Part shown: one piece after another, positions 16,620 through 25,204 of the stretch | Layout: every line of letters starts with the position of its first letter | Position numbering within the stretch: position 1 is the stretch's first letter | Assembly (NCBI GenBank): GCA_022482495.1 | Contig: JAKVPA010000001.1 | Location: forward strand, 310,001-374,000 | Source: Sphaerochaeta sp. | Lineage (GTDB): Bacteria; Spirochaetota; Spirochaetia; Sphaerochaetales; Sphaerochaetaceae | Reading direction: 5' to 3' | Length of the DNA stretch: 64,000 bases | The notes under the pieces: model-generated | Seen by the model: the letters and a program-made list of their open reading frames with translations, nothing else | Told to the model about the DNA's origin: nothing | Databases searched by the model: none | Position numbers and translations under genes: made by a program

Positions 16620-18476
16620 ATGAATATTCTTTCCGTCGAACGTCTTGCCAAAACCGTCAATGATGTCCCGCTGTTTCATGATGCCAGTTTCGGCTTGGAC
16701 GAAGGGGAACATGTCGGTCTGGTCGGGCATAACGGAGCGGGGAAATCCACGCTGCTCTCCACGCTCGCCGGCGCCATTTCCCCGGACGAAGGGACCGTCT
16801 CCCTGAAGAAGGGAACCGATGTGGTGCTCCTCCCCCAACGGATCACATTCACGGAAGACGAAACGGTCGCTTCCTTCCTGTTCTCCGGAATGGGAAGACG
16901 GATCGAACTCCGCAAGGAATATCTCCACGCAGACACAAAAACGATGGCAACATTGGACGAAGAGATGCATGCGCTGGATGGCTGGAATCTGGAGCAGGAC
17001 TACCAGGCGCTCCTCAGCCAGCTGGGGATGGAGGGCATGGATGACCGTCTTCTTTCCACGCTTTCCGGGGGACAGTTGAAAAAGGTCGCCATCGCACGGG
17101 TGCTGGCGGCAAAACCGAACCTGCTGATGCTGGATGAGCCGACCAACCATCTGGACATCGAGACGATCATCTGGTTGCAGGAGTACGTCCGTGCCTCACA
17201 GATGACCATCATCATCGTCACCCATGACCGATATTTCCTGGATGAAGTCGCAACCTCCATTTTGGAACTGGATGGGGGACGAGTATTTCTCCATCCCGGC
17301 TCATTCGCCGACTATCTGCAACGCCGTGAAGAACGGCTCTCCATGGAAGAGAAGGAGCAGGCGCGGATCAAAACGATCCTCCGCAGGGAATTGGAATGGC
17401 TGAAACATGGGCCAAAGGCCAGGACCGGCAAGGACAGCGGCAGGAAGGATCGCATCAAGGAGATGCAGGCGGAGCAACACTCCGTACGGCAGACCGGGCA
17501 GAAGGCGTTTGAAAGCATCGATCGACGGTTGGGTAAGAAAGTACTCCGTCTGGAGCACATCACCAAAGCGTACGGCGACCATCTGCTGTTCCGTGATTTC
17601 TCCTACGATTTCCTTGCCGGCGAGCGCATTGGGTTGATCGGTCCCAACGGCTGCGGGAAAAGCACGTTGCTTGACATCATCACCGGCGTGGTGAAGCCGG
17701 ACAGCGGGACGGTGGACGTCGGCGTGAACACCGTGTTCGGTTACTATGACCAGCGGGGACGCAACCTCCCGGAAGCAAAAACCATTACGGAATACATCAC
17801 CGACATCGCCGAGCGGATCCGGCTCTCCCAGGATGAAGTGGTCTCCCCTGCCCGCTTTCTGGAACTGTTCGGCTTCCCGGAGAAGATGCAGCGTCTTCCC
17901 ATCGCGCGGCTTTCCGGAGGGGAACGCAGACGACTGTATTTGGTCTCCACGTTGATCACCAACCCCAATTTTCTGCTGTTGGACGAACCGACCAACGACC
18001 TGGACCTGGAAACGATGGAAAACCTGGAATCCTATATCCAGGATTTCTCCGGTTGTGCCCTGGTCGTCAGCCATGACCGGGCGTTCCTCGACCAGGCGTG
18101 TGACCACCAGTTCATTCTGGGAGACAAAGAGGGCAACGTAATCAACTGGCCGGGAAGCTACACTGACTGGCACGACCAGCAAACCCAATCACAACCAGAA
18201 CAACCATCAACCACCCAATCGAAACAGCAGAAACGGGAACACCAGGAAAAGAAAGGCCTTTCCTACAAAGAGGCGGAGGAATACCAATCCCTCACCAAGA
18301 AGATTGACCAGTTGACCAAGGAACAGCAAACCTTGGAAGCCAGTTTCTCCACCCTCCAGCCCACCGAACTGGGCACCCTGCAGGAACGCACCAAGCGGTA
18401 CGACCAGAACAAACAGCTTCTTTCCACCATGGAAGACCGTTGGTTGGAACTGGCGGAGAAAGCGGAAGAAACCTAA
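16620..18476 (+). CDS. ABC-F family ATPase (Uup-like)
   Basis: Soluble ribosome-associated or antibiotic-protection-type ATPase with no membrane segment. The 618-residue protein has two ABC domains: Walker A GHNGAGKST near 38 with signature LSGGQ, and GPNGCGKST near 342 with signature LSGGE. DEPTNHLD and DEPTNDLD follow as Walker B motifs. The linker between them (about 240-300) is charged and helical, and the C-terminus is a coiled coil (about 535-615) like that of Uup. There is no Shine-Dalgarno; the start is read from the leaderless promoter. Monocistronic, ending at the bidirectional terminator shared with ilvE. Exact ABC-F subtype uncertain. Confidence 0.9.
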   Translation: MNILSVERLAKTVNDVPLFHDASFGLDEGEHVGLVGHNGAGKSTLLSTLAGAISPDEGTVSLKKGTDVVLLPQRITFTEDETVASFLFSGMGRRIELRKEYLHADTKTMATLDEEMHALDGWNLEQDYQALLSQLGMEGMDDRLLSTLSGGQLKKVAIARVLAAKPNLLMLDEPTNHLDIETIIWLQEYVRASQMTIIIVTHDRYFLDEVATSILELDGGRVFLHPGSFADYLQRREERLSMEEKEQARIKTILRRELEWLKHGPKARTGKDSGRKDRIKEMQAEQHSVRQTGQKAFESIDRRLGKKVLRLEHITKAYGDHLLFRDFSYDFLAGERIGLIGPNGCGKSTLLDIITGVVKPDSGTVDVGVNTVFGYYDQRGRNLPEAKTITEYITDIAERIRLSQDEVVSPARFLELFGFPEKMQRLPIARLSGGERRRLYLVSTLITNPNFLLLDEPTNDLDLETMENLESYIQDFSGCALVVSHDRAFLDQACDHQFILGDKEGNVINWPGSYTDWHDQQTQSQPEQPSTTQSKQQKREHQEKKGLSYKEAEEYQSLTKKIDQLTKEQQTLEASFSTLQPTELGTLQERTKRYDQNKQLLSTMEDRWLELAEKAEET

Positions 18477-20354: not shown

Positions 20355-20379
20355 GAAATCCCCCCGGAAACCCGGGGGG
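20355..20379 (-). terminator. Terminator of the giant protein gene
   Basis: Minus strand: CCCCCCGG / CCGGGGGG stem with a GTTT loop, followed by ATTTCTTG, 17 bp after the stop at 20396. Confidence 0.8.
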
Positions 20380-20395
20380 AACAACACTGCGAAGA

Positions 20396-23300
20396 TTAGA
20401 ACTGGTACGTAAGTCCGACAGAGACCGTACCACGTGTCTGCGCGAGACTGCTGCCAGCGAAGCCAAGCTTCACGCCCGCTTCGGCAAACACCCCAAGGTT
20501 GTCGGTGAAGTCATACTTCACACCGGCATATCCACCGAGGCTGAACAGGACGGAATTGGTTCCTTCCGGAACGAACTCAGCTCCGACGAGCAATCCGCCA
20601 TACAGATACTTCCCAGCGTAACCGACCGTTGCTGCCAACGGGATGCTATTGGCGTTCCCGTTAAGTCCGAAGCCGTATCCGGTATCAAGCCCGAAATACA
20701 GACCACTGGAGAGTTTGTATCCCAGTCTCAGTCCCACACCGATCTGCGGGAATCCTTCGCTGCCATACACACCGTACCCGCCCAAGCCAATGACGAAATT
20801 CGATGTCGTGGCAGGAGTTTCCGCCTTCGGGGCTTCCGCGACCACCACAGGAGCGGCAACAGGAGCTTCCGCCTTCGGGGCTTCCGCGACCGGTTTGGGT
20901 TCTTCAGCCTTCGGAGCTGCGGCAACCGCAACCGGTTTGGTCACGTTGACGCCTTCCGGTCCGGCAGTGACAAGCGTGCCATCGCTGAAGGAGATCTTCC
21001 GCACACCATTCTCTTCGCTGTAGCCCGTAGCCGCGGCGGTGATCACCTGTCCATCGGCAACGAAGCCCTGCGGTCCGTATTCCAGACCATCAGCCAGCGT
21101 GAGGCGGGCAACCGATCCATCCTTCGCGATGACGGCTTTCATGCCATCGGCGTAGGCGATCGTCTTGCTTCCATCAGCAGCCAGCGAGAAACCGGTGATC
21201 GCAGAGGAACTCACATCCAATCCCTGATATCTGGTATGGACGCCGTTCTCATCCGCCGCAATCTCAGCGCCGGAAGCGAACATCACATCCACGATGGAGT
21301 CACCCTTGGTGTAGACCATCATGCCATCATCGAAGGAGAGCAACCGCTCATCACCCTGCGTCTGGAAACCGTTGACGGCAGCCTTGGTGACCACGATTCC
21401 ACGATAGCTGGTTTCCCAACCATCCGGGGATGTCGCGATGGTGATGCCGTTGGGAGAAGCGATGTTCACCCAACCGGATTTCTGTACCGTCAGGACAACG
21501 CCATCCGCATACGTGACCTTCTGGGAACCATCAGACGCTTTGGCATATCCGACGATCGCGGATTCGCTGATCGCCGTATTGCCATAGAACGTTCCAACCC
21601 ATGAGCCATCGGTGGCAAACACCAGACCGTTGGGAAGCGCATAGGCGAGATTCCCTTCCGGCATGACGATCAACACGGACTGATCACCGTACAGCAACGC
21701 CAGACTGCCATCCGCTTCACCCGCGAACTGCTGTACCGGCGTGTCGTTGACCACCACACCCGCGATGGAAGTCTGCATGTCATCCAGCGCGTTGATCTGC
21801 ACCTTCAACGAATTGGGCAGGGAGACCGTCGTCACACCCGTAGCGGCGACATCAACCTTCATACCGTTTTCGTAGGCAAGATGTTTGGCGCCCGATGCAT
21901 CGGCAGCGTATCCGGTGATCGCGACCGTCGAGACCACCTGTCCCGCGAACGAAGTTGCCATACCATCTTTGGTGAAGGCAACCGCCATTCCGTTGGGAAG
22001 CTCCACGTTGCCAAATCCAGCCTGGTCAACCGAAGCGACCATGCCATCAGCATAGGTGACGCTCTTCGTTCCGTTGCTCGCCGAGAACTTGGTGATCGGC
22101 TGGTCGGAAACAACCACCGATCCGTAGGTCGTCAGTGTTCCGGTCTTGGTGAACGCAACCTTCACCCCGTTGGGAAGCGCGATCGTCGCGTATCCCGCTT
22201 TGTCGACGGAAACAACAGTGCCATCCTTGTAGGTCAGCACACGCGTTCCATCCGCACCACTCTTGAATCCGAGAATCGGCTGGTCCGTCACTACAAAGCC
22301 GGCGAACGAGGTCTTCATGCTGCCGTTTTTGGCGACTGCCACCGTGATGCCGTTTGCCGCGGTATAGGTGGTCGTACCATCAGAAGCCGTCGTAACCTTG
22401 ACATCATCCCCATAAGAGACCGCAGGTGCCTGGGCCTTGACAGGTGCTGGTGCCGGAGCCGGTTTCGGTGCCGGAGCGGTTACCGTCGCTGTGCCGGACG
22501 CATCCACAGAGAGCACCGTTCCATCGGCGAAGCCAACCTTCCGCACTCCGTTGGAACTGGCCGCGTACGCGCTGATCGGAGCGGTCGTTACCGTCTTGCC
22601 ACCTTCGGTAGTGACCGTACCAGACTTGGTGAACGCGACGCTCACGCCGTTTTTCAGATTTACCGTAGCGAAGCCCTTGGCATCCACCACAACCGACGTT
22701 CCATCGGCATAGGAGACGGTCCGGGAACCATCAGATCCAAGCTGGTAGCCGGCGATGGCCGCAGTGGTCAGCGGTTGGCCAAGGAACGAGGTGACCTCGC
22801 CCTGTTTGGTGAACGCGACCGTCATGCCATTGCCCAGATCCACCGTACCAAAGCCATTGGCGTCAATGGCAACAGAGGTGCCATCCGCATACCCAATGGT
22901 ACGGGAACCATCTTTCTTCACCGCATACAGCGTGATGCCCGCGTTGGTGATCGGAAGTCCTTCATACGAAGTGGTCATTCCGCTTGCCGTGAAGGCGACG
23001 CTGACGCCATTGCCCAAGCTCACCGTAGCGAACCCTTTGGGATCGACGACCACGGACGAACCATCAGCATAGGCGACTTTGCGGGAACCATCAGAAAGCG
23101 TCTCGTAGGACACGATTGCTGCTTTGCTCACCGGCTGGCCGAGATAGGACGTCACCATGCCATCTTGGGTGAACGCAACCGTCATACCGTTACCGACATC
23201 CACCGTGGCGAACCCTTTGGCGTCAACCGCAACGGAAGAACCATCGGCATATCCGATGCGCTTGGCACCGTCTTTACTGGAAGAGAAAGAAATGATATCA

Positions 23301-25069
23301 GCCGTGGAGACCACCTGGCCGCCATACAGCGTGTTCGTTCCCTTGGCGGTAAACGCCACACTCAGGCCATTGCCCAAGGCAATCGTGGCATATCCCGCTT
23401 TGTCCACGGAAACAACCGTACCATCCTGGTAGGTCAGCACTCGGGAGCCATCAGCGGCTTTGGAGAACGAAACAATCGTCTCATCCGTCAACGGGACTCC
23501 GGCGAACGAGGTCTTCATGCTGCCGTCTTTCGCCACCACAACCGTCAGCCCATTCTGGGCGGTATACGTCGTGGACCCATCCGATGCCGTGGCAACCGCC
23601 ACATCCTCACCGTAGGGTTTCGGGGCTTCCACCGGAGCAGGAGCCGGGGTCTCTGCTTTTGCGGGTGCCGGAGCCGGAGCCTCAGCCTTTGCTGGCGCTG
23701 GCGCTGGTGCCGGTGTCTCTACCTTTGCCGGGGCAGGAGCTGGTTTCGCTTCTTCCGTCTTCGCAGGAGAGGTCACCACAACGGGTTGTTCCGCTACGGT
23801 CGGCACTTGCTTCTTCGAGCAGGAAGCCAAAATGATGATAATCAACACCACAACCGCGACAATGACCCAAATCAGCCATTTGGGGAATTTGCCCGATTTC
23901 TTACCGTCTCCCGTTCCTCCGCCTCCTGTAGCAGACGCTGCAGGAGCCTCCTGTTTCGCAACCGCCGGTTTCTGTGTTACTTCCGCCGGTTTCTTCTGCT
24001 CATCGTCCATTGGTACCTTCTTTCCTTCTGCCATTGTTTCCTTCTTTGCGGTCGGCGCCTTCAGCGTCTTGGCCGCACCCTTTTTATCAGACACCCTGGC
24101 CTGCCCTGCAGGTTCAGGAGTCTTATCCATGTGTACAGAGGAACCAGTCACCTTCGGTTCCGGTGCTGATTCAGGACGAGCCATACCGTCAATGGCGGTA
24201 CGTTCCGTCGTGTAATACCCAGCTTTGGCGTTGACCAACGCTTTCAGTTCCGAGATGTTGTCATCAAGGTTCGGGTCAATATCGTTGAGACGGGGTTGCT
24301 TGCGGAATGCCGTGGGTTTGTCCAGCTTCCACGTAGCGACCGCCTCAAGCTCATCACAGACCCGTTCCAACGGAACAGCGGTCTGTGTGGTGATGGTCAG
24401 TTGCTTCTGGATGGCGTCACGCTCAGCTCGGAGCGCTTTTCGCTTCTCATTGTACTGGGCTTTCAGGGCATCATCGGCCCCAGATGGGGTTTTCGCCGCT
24501 TTGATCTCCCCAAGTTTCGCATCCAACGCCTGTTGCTGTGACTGGAGTTCAAGATAGCTCTTATCATACGCCTTGGCGCTTTGTCGGGCCTGATACAACA
24601 ACTGCTGGACAGTGATGTGTTGGATCCGGTGATAGATTTCCCGGACGGATTCCGTCCCCATCGAAGCCTCATCCAGATCGGGCACGACTTCGGGTTCCGG
24701 AGCGATTTCCGGCCGTTCCATTTCCTCGGCAGCCTTTGCCTCGTCCTGTACAACCGGTTTCTCCACCGTATCCTCCACTTCAGGCCGTGCAAATGGCTGC
24801 TTCGGTTCCTGGGAAGGAGCTGGCTCGGTTGGCTTGATGCTGACGACGGACTTGCTCCGGGGAGAAGATGCAGCAGCCGCCTGTTTGTTCTTTTTTTCCG
24901 CAATCTCCGCCTTCAGCCGTGCCTCAAGCAAAGCCTTTGCTTTGGCGTCACTCATCACCTTCACAGGTGATTCTTTGGGCGCAAGGTTTGTCCGCCCTTG
25001 TACACCAGCATTCTTCTTCACTGGAGCCGTTCTCCGGACTGAACGACATTTGTACCGTTTGCTCGACAT
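20396..25069 (-). CDS. Giant trans-envelope repeat protein with OM barrel
   Basis: 1557 residues; not a family I recognise. Order: a basic, low-complexity N-terminus without signal peptide (1-140); a charged coiled coil (about 145-235); a Pro/Lys/Ala region; one membrane segment, WLIWVIVAVVVLIIIILASC (398-417). Pro/Ala linkers come next (about 430-485), followed by about fifteen ~60-residue repeats (486-1379) in two blocks split by another Pro/Ala linker, a final linker, and a C-terminal domain (1424-1557) of alternating amphipathic strands ending TYQF, as expected of a BAM-assembled 8-strand barrel. Start: AGGAGG lies about 7 nt before ATG 25069. The frame stays open farther upstream, but only as antisense to trkA. 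Inferred role: a tether or conduit between the two membranes. LASC at 414-417 looks like an internal lipobox. Confidence 0.82.
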   Translation of the reverse strand: MSSKRYKCRSVRRTAPVKKNAGVQGRTNLAPKESPVKVMSDAKAKALLEARLKAEIAEKKNKQAAAASSPRSKSVVSIKPTEPAPSQEPKQPFARPEVEDTVEKPVVQDEAKAAEEMERPEIAPEPEVVPDLDEASMGTESVREIYHRIQHITVQQLLYQARQSAKAYDKSYLELQSQQQALDAKLGEIKAAKTPSGADDALKAQYNEKRKALRAERDAIQKQLTITTQTAVPLERVCDELEAVATWKLDKPTAFRKQPRLNDIDPNLDDNISELKALVNAKAGYYTTERTAIDGMARPESAPEPKVTGSSVHMDKTPEPAGQARVSDKKGAAKTLKAPTAKKETMAEGKKVPMDDEQKKPAEVTQKPAVAKQEAPAASATGGGGTGDGKKSGKFPKWLIWVIVAVVVLIIIILASCSKKQVPTVAEQPVVVTSPAKTEEAKPAPAPAKVETPAPAPAPAKAEAPAPAPAKAETPAPAPVEAPKPYGEDVAVATASDGSTTYTAQNGLTVVVAKDGSMKTSFAGVPLTDETIVSFSKAADGSRVLTYQDGTVVSVDKAGYATIALGNGLSVAFTAKGTNTLYGGQVVSTADIISFSSSKDGAKRIGYADGSSVAVDAKGFATVDVGNGMTVAFTQDGMVTSYLGQPVSKAAIVSYETLSDGSRKVAYADGSSVVVDPKGFATVSLGNGVSVAFTASGMTTSYEGLPITNAGITLYAVKKDGSRTIGYADGTSVAIDANGFGTVDLGNGMTVAFTKQGEVTSFLGQPLTTAAIAGYQLGSDGSRTVSYADGTSVVVDAKGFATVNLKNGVSVAFTKSGTVTTEGGKTVTTAPISAYAASSNGVRKVGFADGTVLSVDASGTATVTAPAPKPAPAPAPVKAQAPAVSYGDDVKVTTASDGTTTYTAANGITVAVAKNGSMKTSFAGFVVTDQPILGFKSGADGTRVLTYKDGTVVSVDKAGYATIALPNGVKVAFTKTGTLTTYGSVVVSDQPITKFSASNGTKSVTYADGMVASVDQAGFGNVELPNGMAVAFTKDGMATSFAGQVVSTVAITGYAADASGAKHLAYENGMKVDVAATGVTTVSLPNSLKVQINALDDMQTSIAGVVVNDTPVQQFAGEADGSLALLYGDQSVLIVMPEGNLAYALPNGLVFATDGSWVGTFYGNTAISESAIVGYAKASDGSQKVTYADGVVLTVQKSGWVNIASPNGITIATSPDGWETSYRGIVVTKAAVNGFQTQGDERLLSFDDGMMVYTKGDSIVDVMFASGAEIAADENGVHTRYQGLDVSSSAITGFSLAADGSKTIAYADGMKAVIAKDGSVARLTLADGLEYGPQGFVADGQVITAAATGYSEENGVRKISFSDGTLVTAGPEGVNVTKPVAVAAAPKAEEPKPVAEAPKAEAPVAAPVVVAEAPKAETPATTSNFVIGLGGYGVYGSEGFPQIGVGLRLGYKLSSGLYFGLDTGYGFGLNGNANSIPLAATVGYAGKYLYGGLLVGAEFVPEGTNSVLFSLGGYAGVKYDFTDNLGVFAEAGVKLGFAGSSLAQTRGTVSVGLTYQF
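20933..23614 (-). repeat. Tandem ~180-bp coding repeats in the giant protein gene
   Basis: About fifteen diverged copies of a ~60-codon unit. The consensus reads roughly Y-A-D-G-x-S-V-x-V-D-A-x-G-F-A-T-V, then L-x-N-G-x-x-V-A-F-T and a S-F-x-G-x-x-V element. The two blocks (residues about 486-863 and 886-1379) open with nearly the same sequence (YGEDVAVATASDG and YGDDVKVTTASDG), so a multi-repeat segment was itself duplicated. Copies drift towards the C-terminus. Confidence 0.88.
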
Positions 25070-25204
25070 GCATCTCCTCCTGACTCTGGATACAGAACCC
25101 TTAGTTTGATGATGGAACTGCTTTCCCTCGTTGTCAAGGAAAAGAGCCCAAAAGCCACAAAATGGATGACGTATTGGCAGATTTTTCATCACTTCCTTTG
25201 TTTC

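What the first reader, a model, noticed from the sequence alone, without database searches (positions are those of the whole stretch)
20933..23614. Two-block array of ~60-residue Y-A-D-G repeats resembling G-box-type beta sheets
The units share Y/F-A-D-G-x-x-V and N-G-x-x-V-A-F-T elements, and the two blocks begin with near-identical sequence, so a whole block was duplicated. The D-G / N-G spacing recalls the glycine-repeat (TCP10/CPAP G-box) domains, which form a long free-standing single-layer beta sheet. A similar ribbon here could reach across the periplasm. The G-box likeness is only pattern recognition.
Basis: partly seen in the sequence, partly recalled or inferred. Interest (0 to 1): 0.6.

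Follow-up and report, generated by a model that had tools for sequence, protein, structure and literature searches.

The report
Spirochaete membrane-bridging protein with G-box sheet
A gut spirochaete appears to make one long protein that runs from inside the cell, through the inner membrane and across the gap as a thin beta-sheet ribbon, to a barrel in the outer membrane; the ribbon resembles one known from animal centriole proteins.

Summary
The repeats are real: 43 + 5x60 + 28 residues (block 1) and 43 + 7x~60 + 29 (block 2) of one minus-strand gene, 25069-20396, 1557 aa. The G-box guess holds. Pfam Tcp10_C scores 97.7 bits on the array (cut-off 36); shuffled, reversed and permuted copies do not match it. 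A profile of the units, run against the PDB, ranks CPAP/Sas-4 first (E 0.00085). AlphaFold2 gives ~100 short strands, no helix; among solved folds, structural comparison ranks the known free-standing sheets (CPAP/Sas-4, MORN1, OspA) at or near the top. Confidence is moderate and the coordinates were not seen. "Whole block duplicated" is wrong: only the first ~100 residues match (65-71%).

The array sits between a conserved helical hairpin plus membrane helix (N-side) and a probable 8-stranded outer-membrane barrel (C-end). Relatives in the same family keep hairpin-helix-spacer-barrel but change the spacer; others have the hairpin alone, the reverse order, or lipoprotein-sheet-barrel without hairpin. 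Best reading: a modular strut bridging inner and outer membranes, using a G-box-like sheet as spacer. The bridge is inferred from sequence; no experiment is known to me. A rival is lipoprotein processing at the LASC motif.

The parts
25109..25137 (-). promoter-like site TTGACA-17-CATCAT
   Evidence: 10 of 12 matches; the region has 4 such sites against 1.9 expected, so weak on its own
25076..25081 (-). Shine-Dalgarno AGGAGG, 6 bases before ATG 25069
20396..25069 (-). coding sequence of the bridge protein, 1557 aa plus stop
   Evidence: orthologues in two same-genus genomes
24212..24652 (-). cytoplasmic helical-hairpin domain (residues 140-286), conserved in the family, no known Pfam or PDB relative
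   Evidence: 30 of 139 genomes; two long helices, pLDDT mostly 80-91; best PDB E 0.35
23819..23878 (-). membrane helix, residues 398-417, ending in lipobox-like LASC with a juxtamembrane Cys
23615..23800 (-). Pro-Ala-rich linker 1; holds a 36-bp tandem repeat at 23673-23744
22472..23614 (-). G-box-like block 1: 43 + 5 x 60 + 28 residues
22421..22471 (-). Pro-Ala linker between the blocks
20927..22420 (-). G-box-like block 2: 43 + 7 x ~60 + 29 residues
20807..20926 (-). Pro-Ala-Glu linker 3
20399..20800 (-). probable 8-stranded outer-membrane beta-barrel, residues 1424-1557, ending in ...VGLTYQF
20359..20380 (-). terminator-like hairpin after the stop codon
   Evidence: 9 pairs, 8 of them GC; 6 found in the region against 4.7 expected

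Best explanation
One polypeptide bridges the cell envelope of a non-flagellate rumen spirochaete. The N-terminal helical hairpin stays in the cytoplasm and a single helix crosses the inner membrane. A Pro-Ala linker leads to a long free-standing single-layer beta-sheet of the CPAP/Sas-4 G-box type, made as two ribbons with a flexible joint. A last linker leads to a small barrel that BAM inserts in the outer membrane. It acts as a spacer or tether that fixes the distance between the membranes and ties an unknown cytoplasmic partner to the outer membrane. Shown by computation: the repeats, the G-box profile and fold resemblance, the membrane helix, the conserved domain order, purifying selection. 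Inferred: topology, outer-membrane insertion, sheet dimensions (at most about 20 + 27 nm if each of 43 + 58 strands adds 4.7-4.8 A, a spacing I recall), and tethering as the function.
For: G-box: Pfam Tcp10_C 87.2 bits on the whole protein, cut-off 36, 97.7 on the array, with no Tcp10_C match in shuffled, reversed or unit-permuted copies. A unit profile finds CPAP/Sas-4 first in the PDB, E 0.00085. AlphaFold2 gives 58 strands in block 2 and 43 in block 1, mean 5 residues each. VIA for block 2: CPAP Z 8.4 (120 residues, rmsd 5.6), 4bxr 8.3 (158 residues, rmsd 8.6), Sas-4 8.0. For block 1: Sas-4/CPAP rank first at Z 5.5, then MORN1 and OspA. Bridge: of 30 hairpin proteins kept, 8 run hairpin then membrane helix; 6 of the 7 that are complete end in F with at least 4 of 5 alternate hydrophobic residues, the seventh (G042) has a sub-cut-off barrel match, and none of the 20 proteins without a membrane helix has such an end. 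Two of 149 stop-bounded window ORFs meet the end rule, one being this gene. In 8 of 10 C-terminal domains the best Pfam match is an outer-membrane barrel family. Selection is strongest on the hairpin (dN/dS 0.07) and barrel (0.10), weaker on the array (0.20) and the linkers (0.28-0.62). 14 of 15 genomes hold Omp85.
Against: No barrel match reaches a Pfam cut-off (the window's own is E 0.016), and barrel pLDDT is only ~42-53. The array models have block pLDDT 54-84, pTM 0.38-0.39 and shallow alignments of 4 and 6 rows; I never saw the coordinates. VIA Z up to 8.4 lies near the range that the tool calls common. Teneurin YD-shell pieces (58 residues) score 8.3, tied with CPAP, and so does a 57-residue piece of 7n6g. 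No single unit reaches the Tcp10_C cut-off in whole-genome search; the score is a sum over repeats. The membrane helix ends in LASC, a possible lipoprotein cleavage site. Charges around the window's helix do not decide topology (4 K/R on the N-side, 3 on the C-side; in G001 and G002 the C-side has more).
Confidence: 0.55

Rival explanations
1. Lipoprotein version: LASC is a working lipobox. The hairpin is cut off, and the mature product is a lipid-anchored outer-membrane protein with sheet and barrel, not tied to the inner membrane.
For: LASC in the window's helix. In the sister genus g18 four proteins (L081, L082, L083, L042) start with lipoprotein-like signals, then repeat units, then a C-terminal domain, without the hairpin.
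Against: Four of the other hairpin-first proteins have K or R just before the Cys (VKC, RRC), which breaks the lipobox rule as I recall it. A cut would release the hairpin, yet the hairpin is the most constrained part.
Confidence: 0.2
2. Autotransporter-like: the C-terminal barrel exports the repeat array to the cell surface.
For: Repeat passenger followed by a C-terminal barrel. The C-terminal domain of the relative L101 has Autotransporter as best Pfam match, E 2.4e-5, under its cut-off.
Against: The predicted barrel has 8 strands in about 135 residues; classical passenger barrels have 12 strands (recalled). An N-terminal cytoplasmic domain and membrane helix would hold the passenger back.
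Confidence: 0.07
3. Same order of domains, but the array is a ligand-binding surface (as the CPAP G-box binds a proline-rich peptide along one edge) and bridging is incidental. The protein's own Pro-Ala linkers or a periplasmic partner could be the ligand.
For: CPAP binds a STIL peptide in polyproline-II form along the sheet edge (PMC3776556, passages read). This protein carries Pro-Ala linkers next to each block.
Against: In relatives the same place is filled by other modules or linker alone, as expected for a spacer rather than a specific binder.
Confidence: 0.1
4. A closed fold: WD40-like propellers or a YD/teneurin-type shell.
For: Foldseek ranks propellers first by E-value. bpX1 scores 37 bits against a cut-off of 27. 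VIA matches teneurin shell pieces at Z 8.3 over 58 residues.
Against: Propeller hits have TM ~0.1 and rmsd 25-35 A. A reversed copy of the array yields an unrelated family at 35 bits over its cut-off, so scores of that size are noise here. No YD, RHS or MORN family appears in the Pfam scan at E <= 1.
Confidence: 0.08

Closest known systems
CPAP/Sas-4/Tcp10 G-box (TCP domain, PF07202)
   Same: x-D-G/N-G turns, about 9 residues per strand, profile match over the curated cut-off, first-ranked sheet in VIA. The CPAP domain is a single layer of ~20 antiparallel strands exposed on both sides (PMC3776556 passages).
   Different: Bacterial and extracytoplasmic; a regular 60-residue super-unit of about 7 strands; 43 + 58 strands in two blocks; fused to a membrane helix and a probable barrel; no centriole context.
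MORN repeats and OspA single-layer sheet
   Same: Free-standing extended sheets; matched in VIA (MORN1 Z 5.0 and engineered OspA 4.7 for block 1; OspA mutant 6.9 for block 2). The MORN1 crystal structure paper itself names the CPAP G-box as closest fold (PMC7725318 passage).
   Different: No MORN match in Pfam; OspA is a surface lipoprotein with globular caps (recalled).
Envelope-spanning tethers: VirB10, TamB, TonB/TolA, Lpp (recalled)
   Same: Anchored on one membrane with a long periplasmic reach.
   Different: VirB10 inserts a helical antenna; TamB and TonB/TolA contact separate outer-membrane partners; Lpp is bound to peptidoglycan. Here one chain would hold an inner-membrane helix, a sheet spacer and its own barrel.
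OmpA-type barrel tethers (PF00691)
   Same: Small barrel used to anchor the outer membrane.
   Different: The partner would be the inner membrane, not peptidoglycan; 0 of 15 genomes checked hold an OmpA C-terminal domain.

Membership tests
Tcp10_C / G-box (PF07202) | Profile score over the curated cut-off | tested here: met
   87.2 bits whole protein, 97.7 array, cut-off 36; all 3 orthologues in A1 match the family at E <= 0.1; no match in three scrambled controls. No single unit passes in genome search.
Tcp10_C / G-box (PF07202) | Reverse profile search finds CPAP/Sas-4 | tested here: met
   First five of 26 distinct PDB sequences, best E 0.00085.
Tcp10_C / G-box (PF07202) | Open single-layer antiparallel sheet | tested here: inconclusive
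   AlphaFold2 and VIA point this way, but confidence is moderate and Z is at most 8.4.
Tcp10_C / G-box (PF07202) | Binds a proline-rich peptide on one edge | not testable with these tools
   Needs a binding assay.
MORN repeats | MORN profile match | tested here: not met
   Not in the Pfam list at E <= 1.
YD / RHS repeats | RHS_repeat or YD profile match | tested here: not met
   Not in the Pfam list at E <= 1.
Beta-propellers | Closed propeller model | tested here: inconclusive
   Top Foldseek rows by E-value, but TM ~0.1 and rmsd 25-35 A; bpX1 37 bits, at noise level here.
Outer-membrane beta-barrel (OMP_b-brl PF13505) | Profile score over the curated cut-off | tested here: not met
   Window domain 15.8 bits, cut-off 28.7; 8 of 10 domains have a barrel family as best match, none over its cut-off.
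Outer-membrane beta-barrel (general) | Terminal aromatic with alternating hydrophobic residues; 8 strands of 11-15 residues | tested here: met
   pLDDT of the barrel only about 50.
Lipoprotein (SPII) | N-terminal signal with lipobox | tested here: not met
   LASC is at residues 414-417, behind a long N-terminal region that starts at a good Shine-Dalgarno site. The g18 relatives do have N-terminal lipobox-like signals.
Type Va autotransporter | 12-stranded C-terminal barrel | tested here: not met
   8 strands predicted, at low confidence.

The most novel reading that the evidence does not exclude
A lineage-specific class of modular membrane bridges. A cytoplasmic hairpin is joined through one inner-membrane helix to an outer-membrane anchor (a C-terminal barrel, or a lipobox when the order is reversed), while the periplasmic spacer is freely exchanged, one version being a bacterial G-box sheet. 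The spirochaetes checked lack flagellin and OmpA-type peptidoglycan tethers, so the bridges may take over the job of holding the two membranes at a set distance.
Probability: 0.35. Interest if true: 0.85.

Novelty: new variant of a known kind. Interest (0 to 1): 0.7.

Why it matters
A free-standing G-box sheet known from centriole proteins would be at work in a bacterial envelope as a structural spacer, showing that such sheets can be made in lengths of dozens of strands. A single chain with an inner-membrane helix and its own outer-membrane barrel would be an unusually direct physical link between the membranes, and the spacer exchange between genera offers a natural experiment on what sets membrane spacing. 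It also gives a function to test for a hairpin domain without a known family.

Tried and rejected
Whole-block duplication: rejected from the unit identity matrix. DNA-level tandem array: not found. Pfam bpX1, C5orf34, HCBP_related, CopK and DUF5696 as true memberships: set aside. A reversed copy of the array gives an unrelated family (KMPT-N) at 35 bits over its cut-off, so 25-37 bits on this repeat protein mean little. Tcp10_C in g18 relatives: L081 and L083 show none, so their link to the array rests on the unit profile (5 proteins at E 4.9e-15 to 1.6e-5 of 10 searched, with E-values for ten proteins and so lenient; in the 139-genome search only G045 and G052 pass beside the genus). Conserved neighbourhood: the window's flanking genes (names by eye: trkA/trkH, a small membrane protein, branched-chain aminotransferase) differ in L034 and L035; an ABC-F ATPase lies near the gene in the window (16620-18476), L083 and L042 (by eye), not pursued. 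Hairpin domain against the PDB: nothing better than E 0.35. Hairpin against Pfam and NCBIfam: nothing convincing. First genome-contig scan with the single protein: no relative. Origins of the bridge order: the hairpin tree (26 rows) needs 5 changes of the bridge label, at least 3 forced by well-supported branches, but long branches make this unsure. Peptidoglycan idea: a PBP transpeptidase is present in 8 of 15 genomes, the window's own included, so 'no cell wall' is not the explanation for this genome. Papers: bacterial G-box not seen in the listings; envelope bridges searched (listings only); Sphaerochaeta (listings; passages of PMC3726837, no use made of them). These open-licence searches do not show that nothing is in print.

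Full report
THE OBSERVATION. The region 20933-23614 is part of one minus-strand gene. ATG 25069 has AGGAGG six bases upstream, a promoter-like TTGACA-17-CATCAT lies at 25137-25109 and a GC-rich terminator-like hairpin at 20380-20359. The product is 1557 residues (P0001). Autocorrelation shows period 60 and an offset of 400 between the blocks, far above 200 shuffles. Block 1 is 43 + 5x60 + 28 residues, block 2 is 43 + 7x~60 + 29. Only the first ~100 residues are well shared between the blocks, at 65-71% identity, so 'whole block duplicated' does not hold. Between the orthologues in G001 and G002 (84% identical) dN/dS is 0.20 over the array, 0.07 over the hairpin, 0.10 over the barrel and 0.28-0.62 over the linkers.

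IS IT A G-BOX? Pfam gives Tcp10_C at 87.2 bits (cut-off 36) on the whole protein and 97.7 bits, E 2.7e-28, on the array. Of three scrambled controls, the shuffle matches no family, the unit-permuted copy has one insignificant match, and the reversed copy has four families, one of them (KMPT-N, 35.3 bits) over its cut-off; none is Tcp10_C. So hits of about 35 bits on this array are noise, and 97.7 is not. The score is a sum: single units do not pass in whole-genome search (own genome 0 matches; of 101 genomes only the two orthologues, at 21 bits, under the cut-off). A profile of 11 units against the PDB lists CPAP and Sas-4 as the first five of 26 distinct sequences, E 0.00085 to 0.043.

FOLD. 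Two AlphaFold2 jobs: residues 884-1557 (block 2 and barrel; 4-row alignment, mean pLDDT 62.6, pTM 0.39) and 121-866 (hairpin, membrane helix, block 1; 6 rows, 64.6, 0.38). The blocks are 58 and 43 strands of mean length 5 and no helix. VIA ranks CPAP 4lzf first for block 2 (Z 8.4, 120 residues, rmsd 5.6), with 4bxr 8.3 and Sas-4 4mpz 8.0; a teneurin piece of 58 residues and a 57-residue piece of 7n6g tie at 8.3. For block 1 Sas-4 and CPAP lead (Z 5.5, 5.5, 5.2), then MORN1 (5.0); engineered OspA follows at 4.7. These Z are in or near the tool's 'common' range; the point is which folds gather at the top. Foldseek by E-value puts tandem propellers first, with TM ~0.1 and rmsd 25-35 A; CPAP 4bxq stands at rank 40 with TM 0.36 by target length. 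I read this as favouring an open sheet; I have not seen the coordinates.

THE REST OF THE PROTEIN. Residues 140-286 form a helical hairpin (pLDDT mostly 80-91) with no Pfam, NCBIfam or PDB relative that convinces. Residues 398-417 are a strong membrane helix. The last 134 residues are eight strands of 11-15 residues and end in VGLTYQF. Their Pfam match to OMP_b-brl is sub-threshold (E 0.016), but in 8 of 10 such domains, the window's included, a barrel family is the best match.

RELATIVES. The unit profile finds 5 of 139 genomes of the family: the three of the genus, and G045 and G052 of genus g18; in 392 genomes spread over the phylum only the own genome. The hairpin profile finds 30 of 139 family genomes in 11 of 22 genera, 31 matches, and 4 of 392 phylum genomes, one of them weak and outside the family. 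I dropped G148 (a 29-residue match within a signal-peptide protein) and sorted the other 30: 8 run hairpin then membrane helix (G000, G001, G002, G013, G042, G111 and two in G139, one cut by its contig end); 2 are reversed (G009, G020: lipobox-like start, periplasmic part, membrane helix followed by K/R, hairpin at the C-end); 20 have no membrane helix. Some of the 20 are cut by contig ends or may be frameshifted. Of the 7 complete hairpin-first proteins, 6 end in F with at least 4 of 5 alternating hydrophobic residues and the seventh (G042) has a sub-cut-off barrel match. Between helix and barrel they carry a G-box array (genus g1), other modules with no unit match (G111, G139, G042), or a Pro/Glu-rich linker (G013). 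In g18 the units sit between a lipoprotein-like signal and a C-terminal domain, without the hairpin. In G015 a hairpin gene and a separate helix-plus-units gene occur on different contigs, a split version of what is fused here. The hairpin tree of 26 rows needs 5 changes of the bridge label. Named records of the two orthologue contigs are Spirochaetales/Spirochaetaceae metagenome assemblies; the rumen origin is stated in the titles of two hairpin-only relatives and recalled for the isolate code RUG.

MECHANISM. Best reading: a tether or spacer between the membranes, with the hairpin inside, one helix through the inner membrane, an extended sheet in the periplasm, and a barrel in the outer membrane. 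The charge rule supports hairpin-inside in G013, G111, G139a and G042 and in the reversed pair, and is undecided in the window and its orthologues. Of 15 genomes, 14 hold Omp85, none holds flagellin or an OmpA peptidoglycan-binding domain, and 8 hold a PBP transpeptidase, the own genome included. A replacement for OmpA-type tethers is therefore possible, but no more than an idea. The main rival is lipoprotein processing at LASC. In four other hairpin-first proteins a basic residue precedes the Cys, which I recall as unfit for that enzyme, yet the Cys itself is kept in 7 of 8 and is unexplained.

NOVELTY. The sheet type is known from CPAP/Sas-4 (PMC3776556, passages read), and the MORN1 paper names CPAP as its closest fold (PMC7725318, passages read). 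I found no paper on a bacterial G-box or on this architecture in the open-licence library (searches; listings only), which is a narrow check. Hence: new variant of a known kind, with a bolder modular-bridge reading left open.

Noticed in passing
L103:1547-3046 (+) and L104:2302-3717 (-): Reversed proteins: lipobox-like start, periplasmic domain, low-complexity linker, membrane helix with K/R after it, hairpin domain at the C-end. The hairpin would be cytoplasmic here too.
   Followed up: partly
window 23819-23821 and relatives: A Cys directly after the membrane helix in 7 of 8 hairpin-first proteins, in four of them preceded by K or R; role unknown.
   Followed up: partly
L098:1014-4577 (-): A 1188-aa relative in which the spacer is made of ~100-residue repeated modules (YGYTADFRIGTEDATV...), with no match to the G-box units.
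   Followed up: no
L041:558-1379 and L040:6756-7862 (genome G015): Hairpin gene and a helix-plus-units gene on separate contigs, a possible split version of the window's fused gene.
   Followed up: partly
window 16620-18476; L083:7202-9079; L042:155-2071: An ABC-F type ATPase gene lies within several kb of the sheet gene in three genomes of two genera.
   Followed up: no
genomes G111, G013, G042, G139, G009, G020, G025: No PBP transpeptidase found in these 7 of 15 genomes, several of them incomplete; may mean an unusual cell wall.
   Followed up: no
L048, L049, L050, L036, L101: Hairpin proteins share an N-terminal motif like YNGVEMTRAEREALIRA, absent from the window's protein.
   Followed up: no
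window 21881-24169 (+): A 762-aa open frame on the opposite strand of the array; most likely a by-product of codon usage.
   Followed up: no
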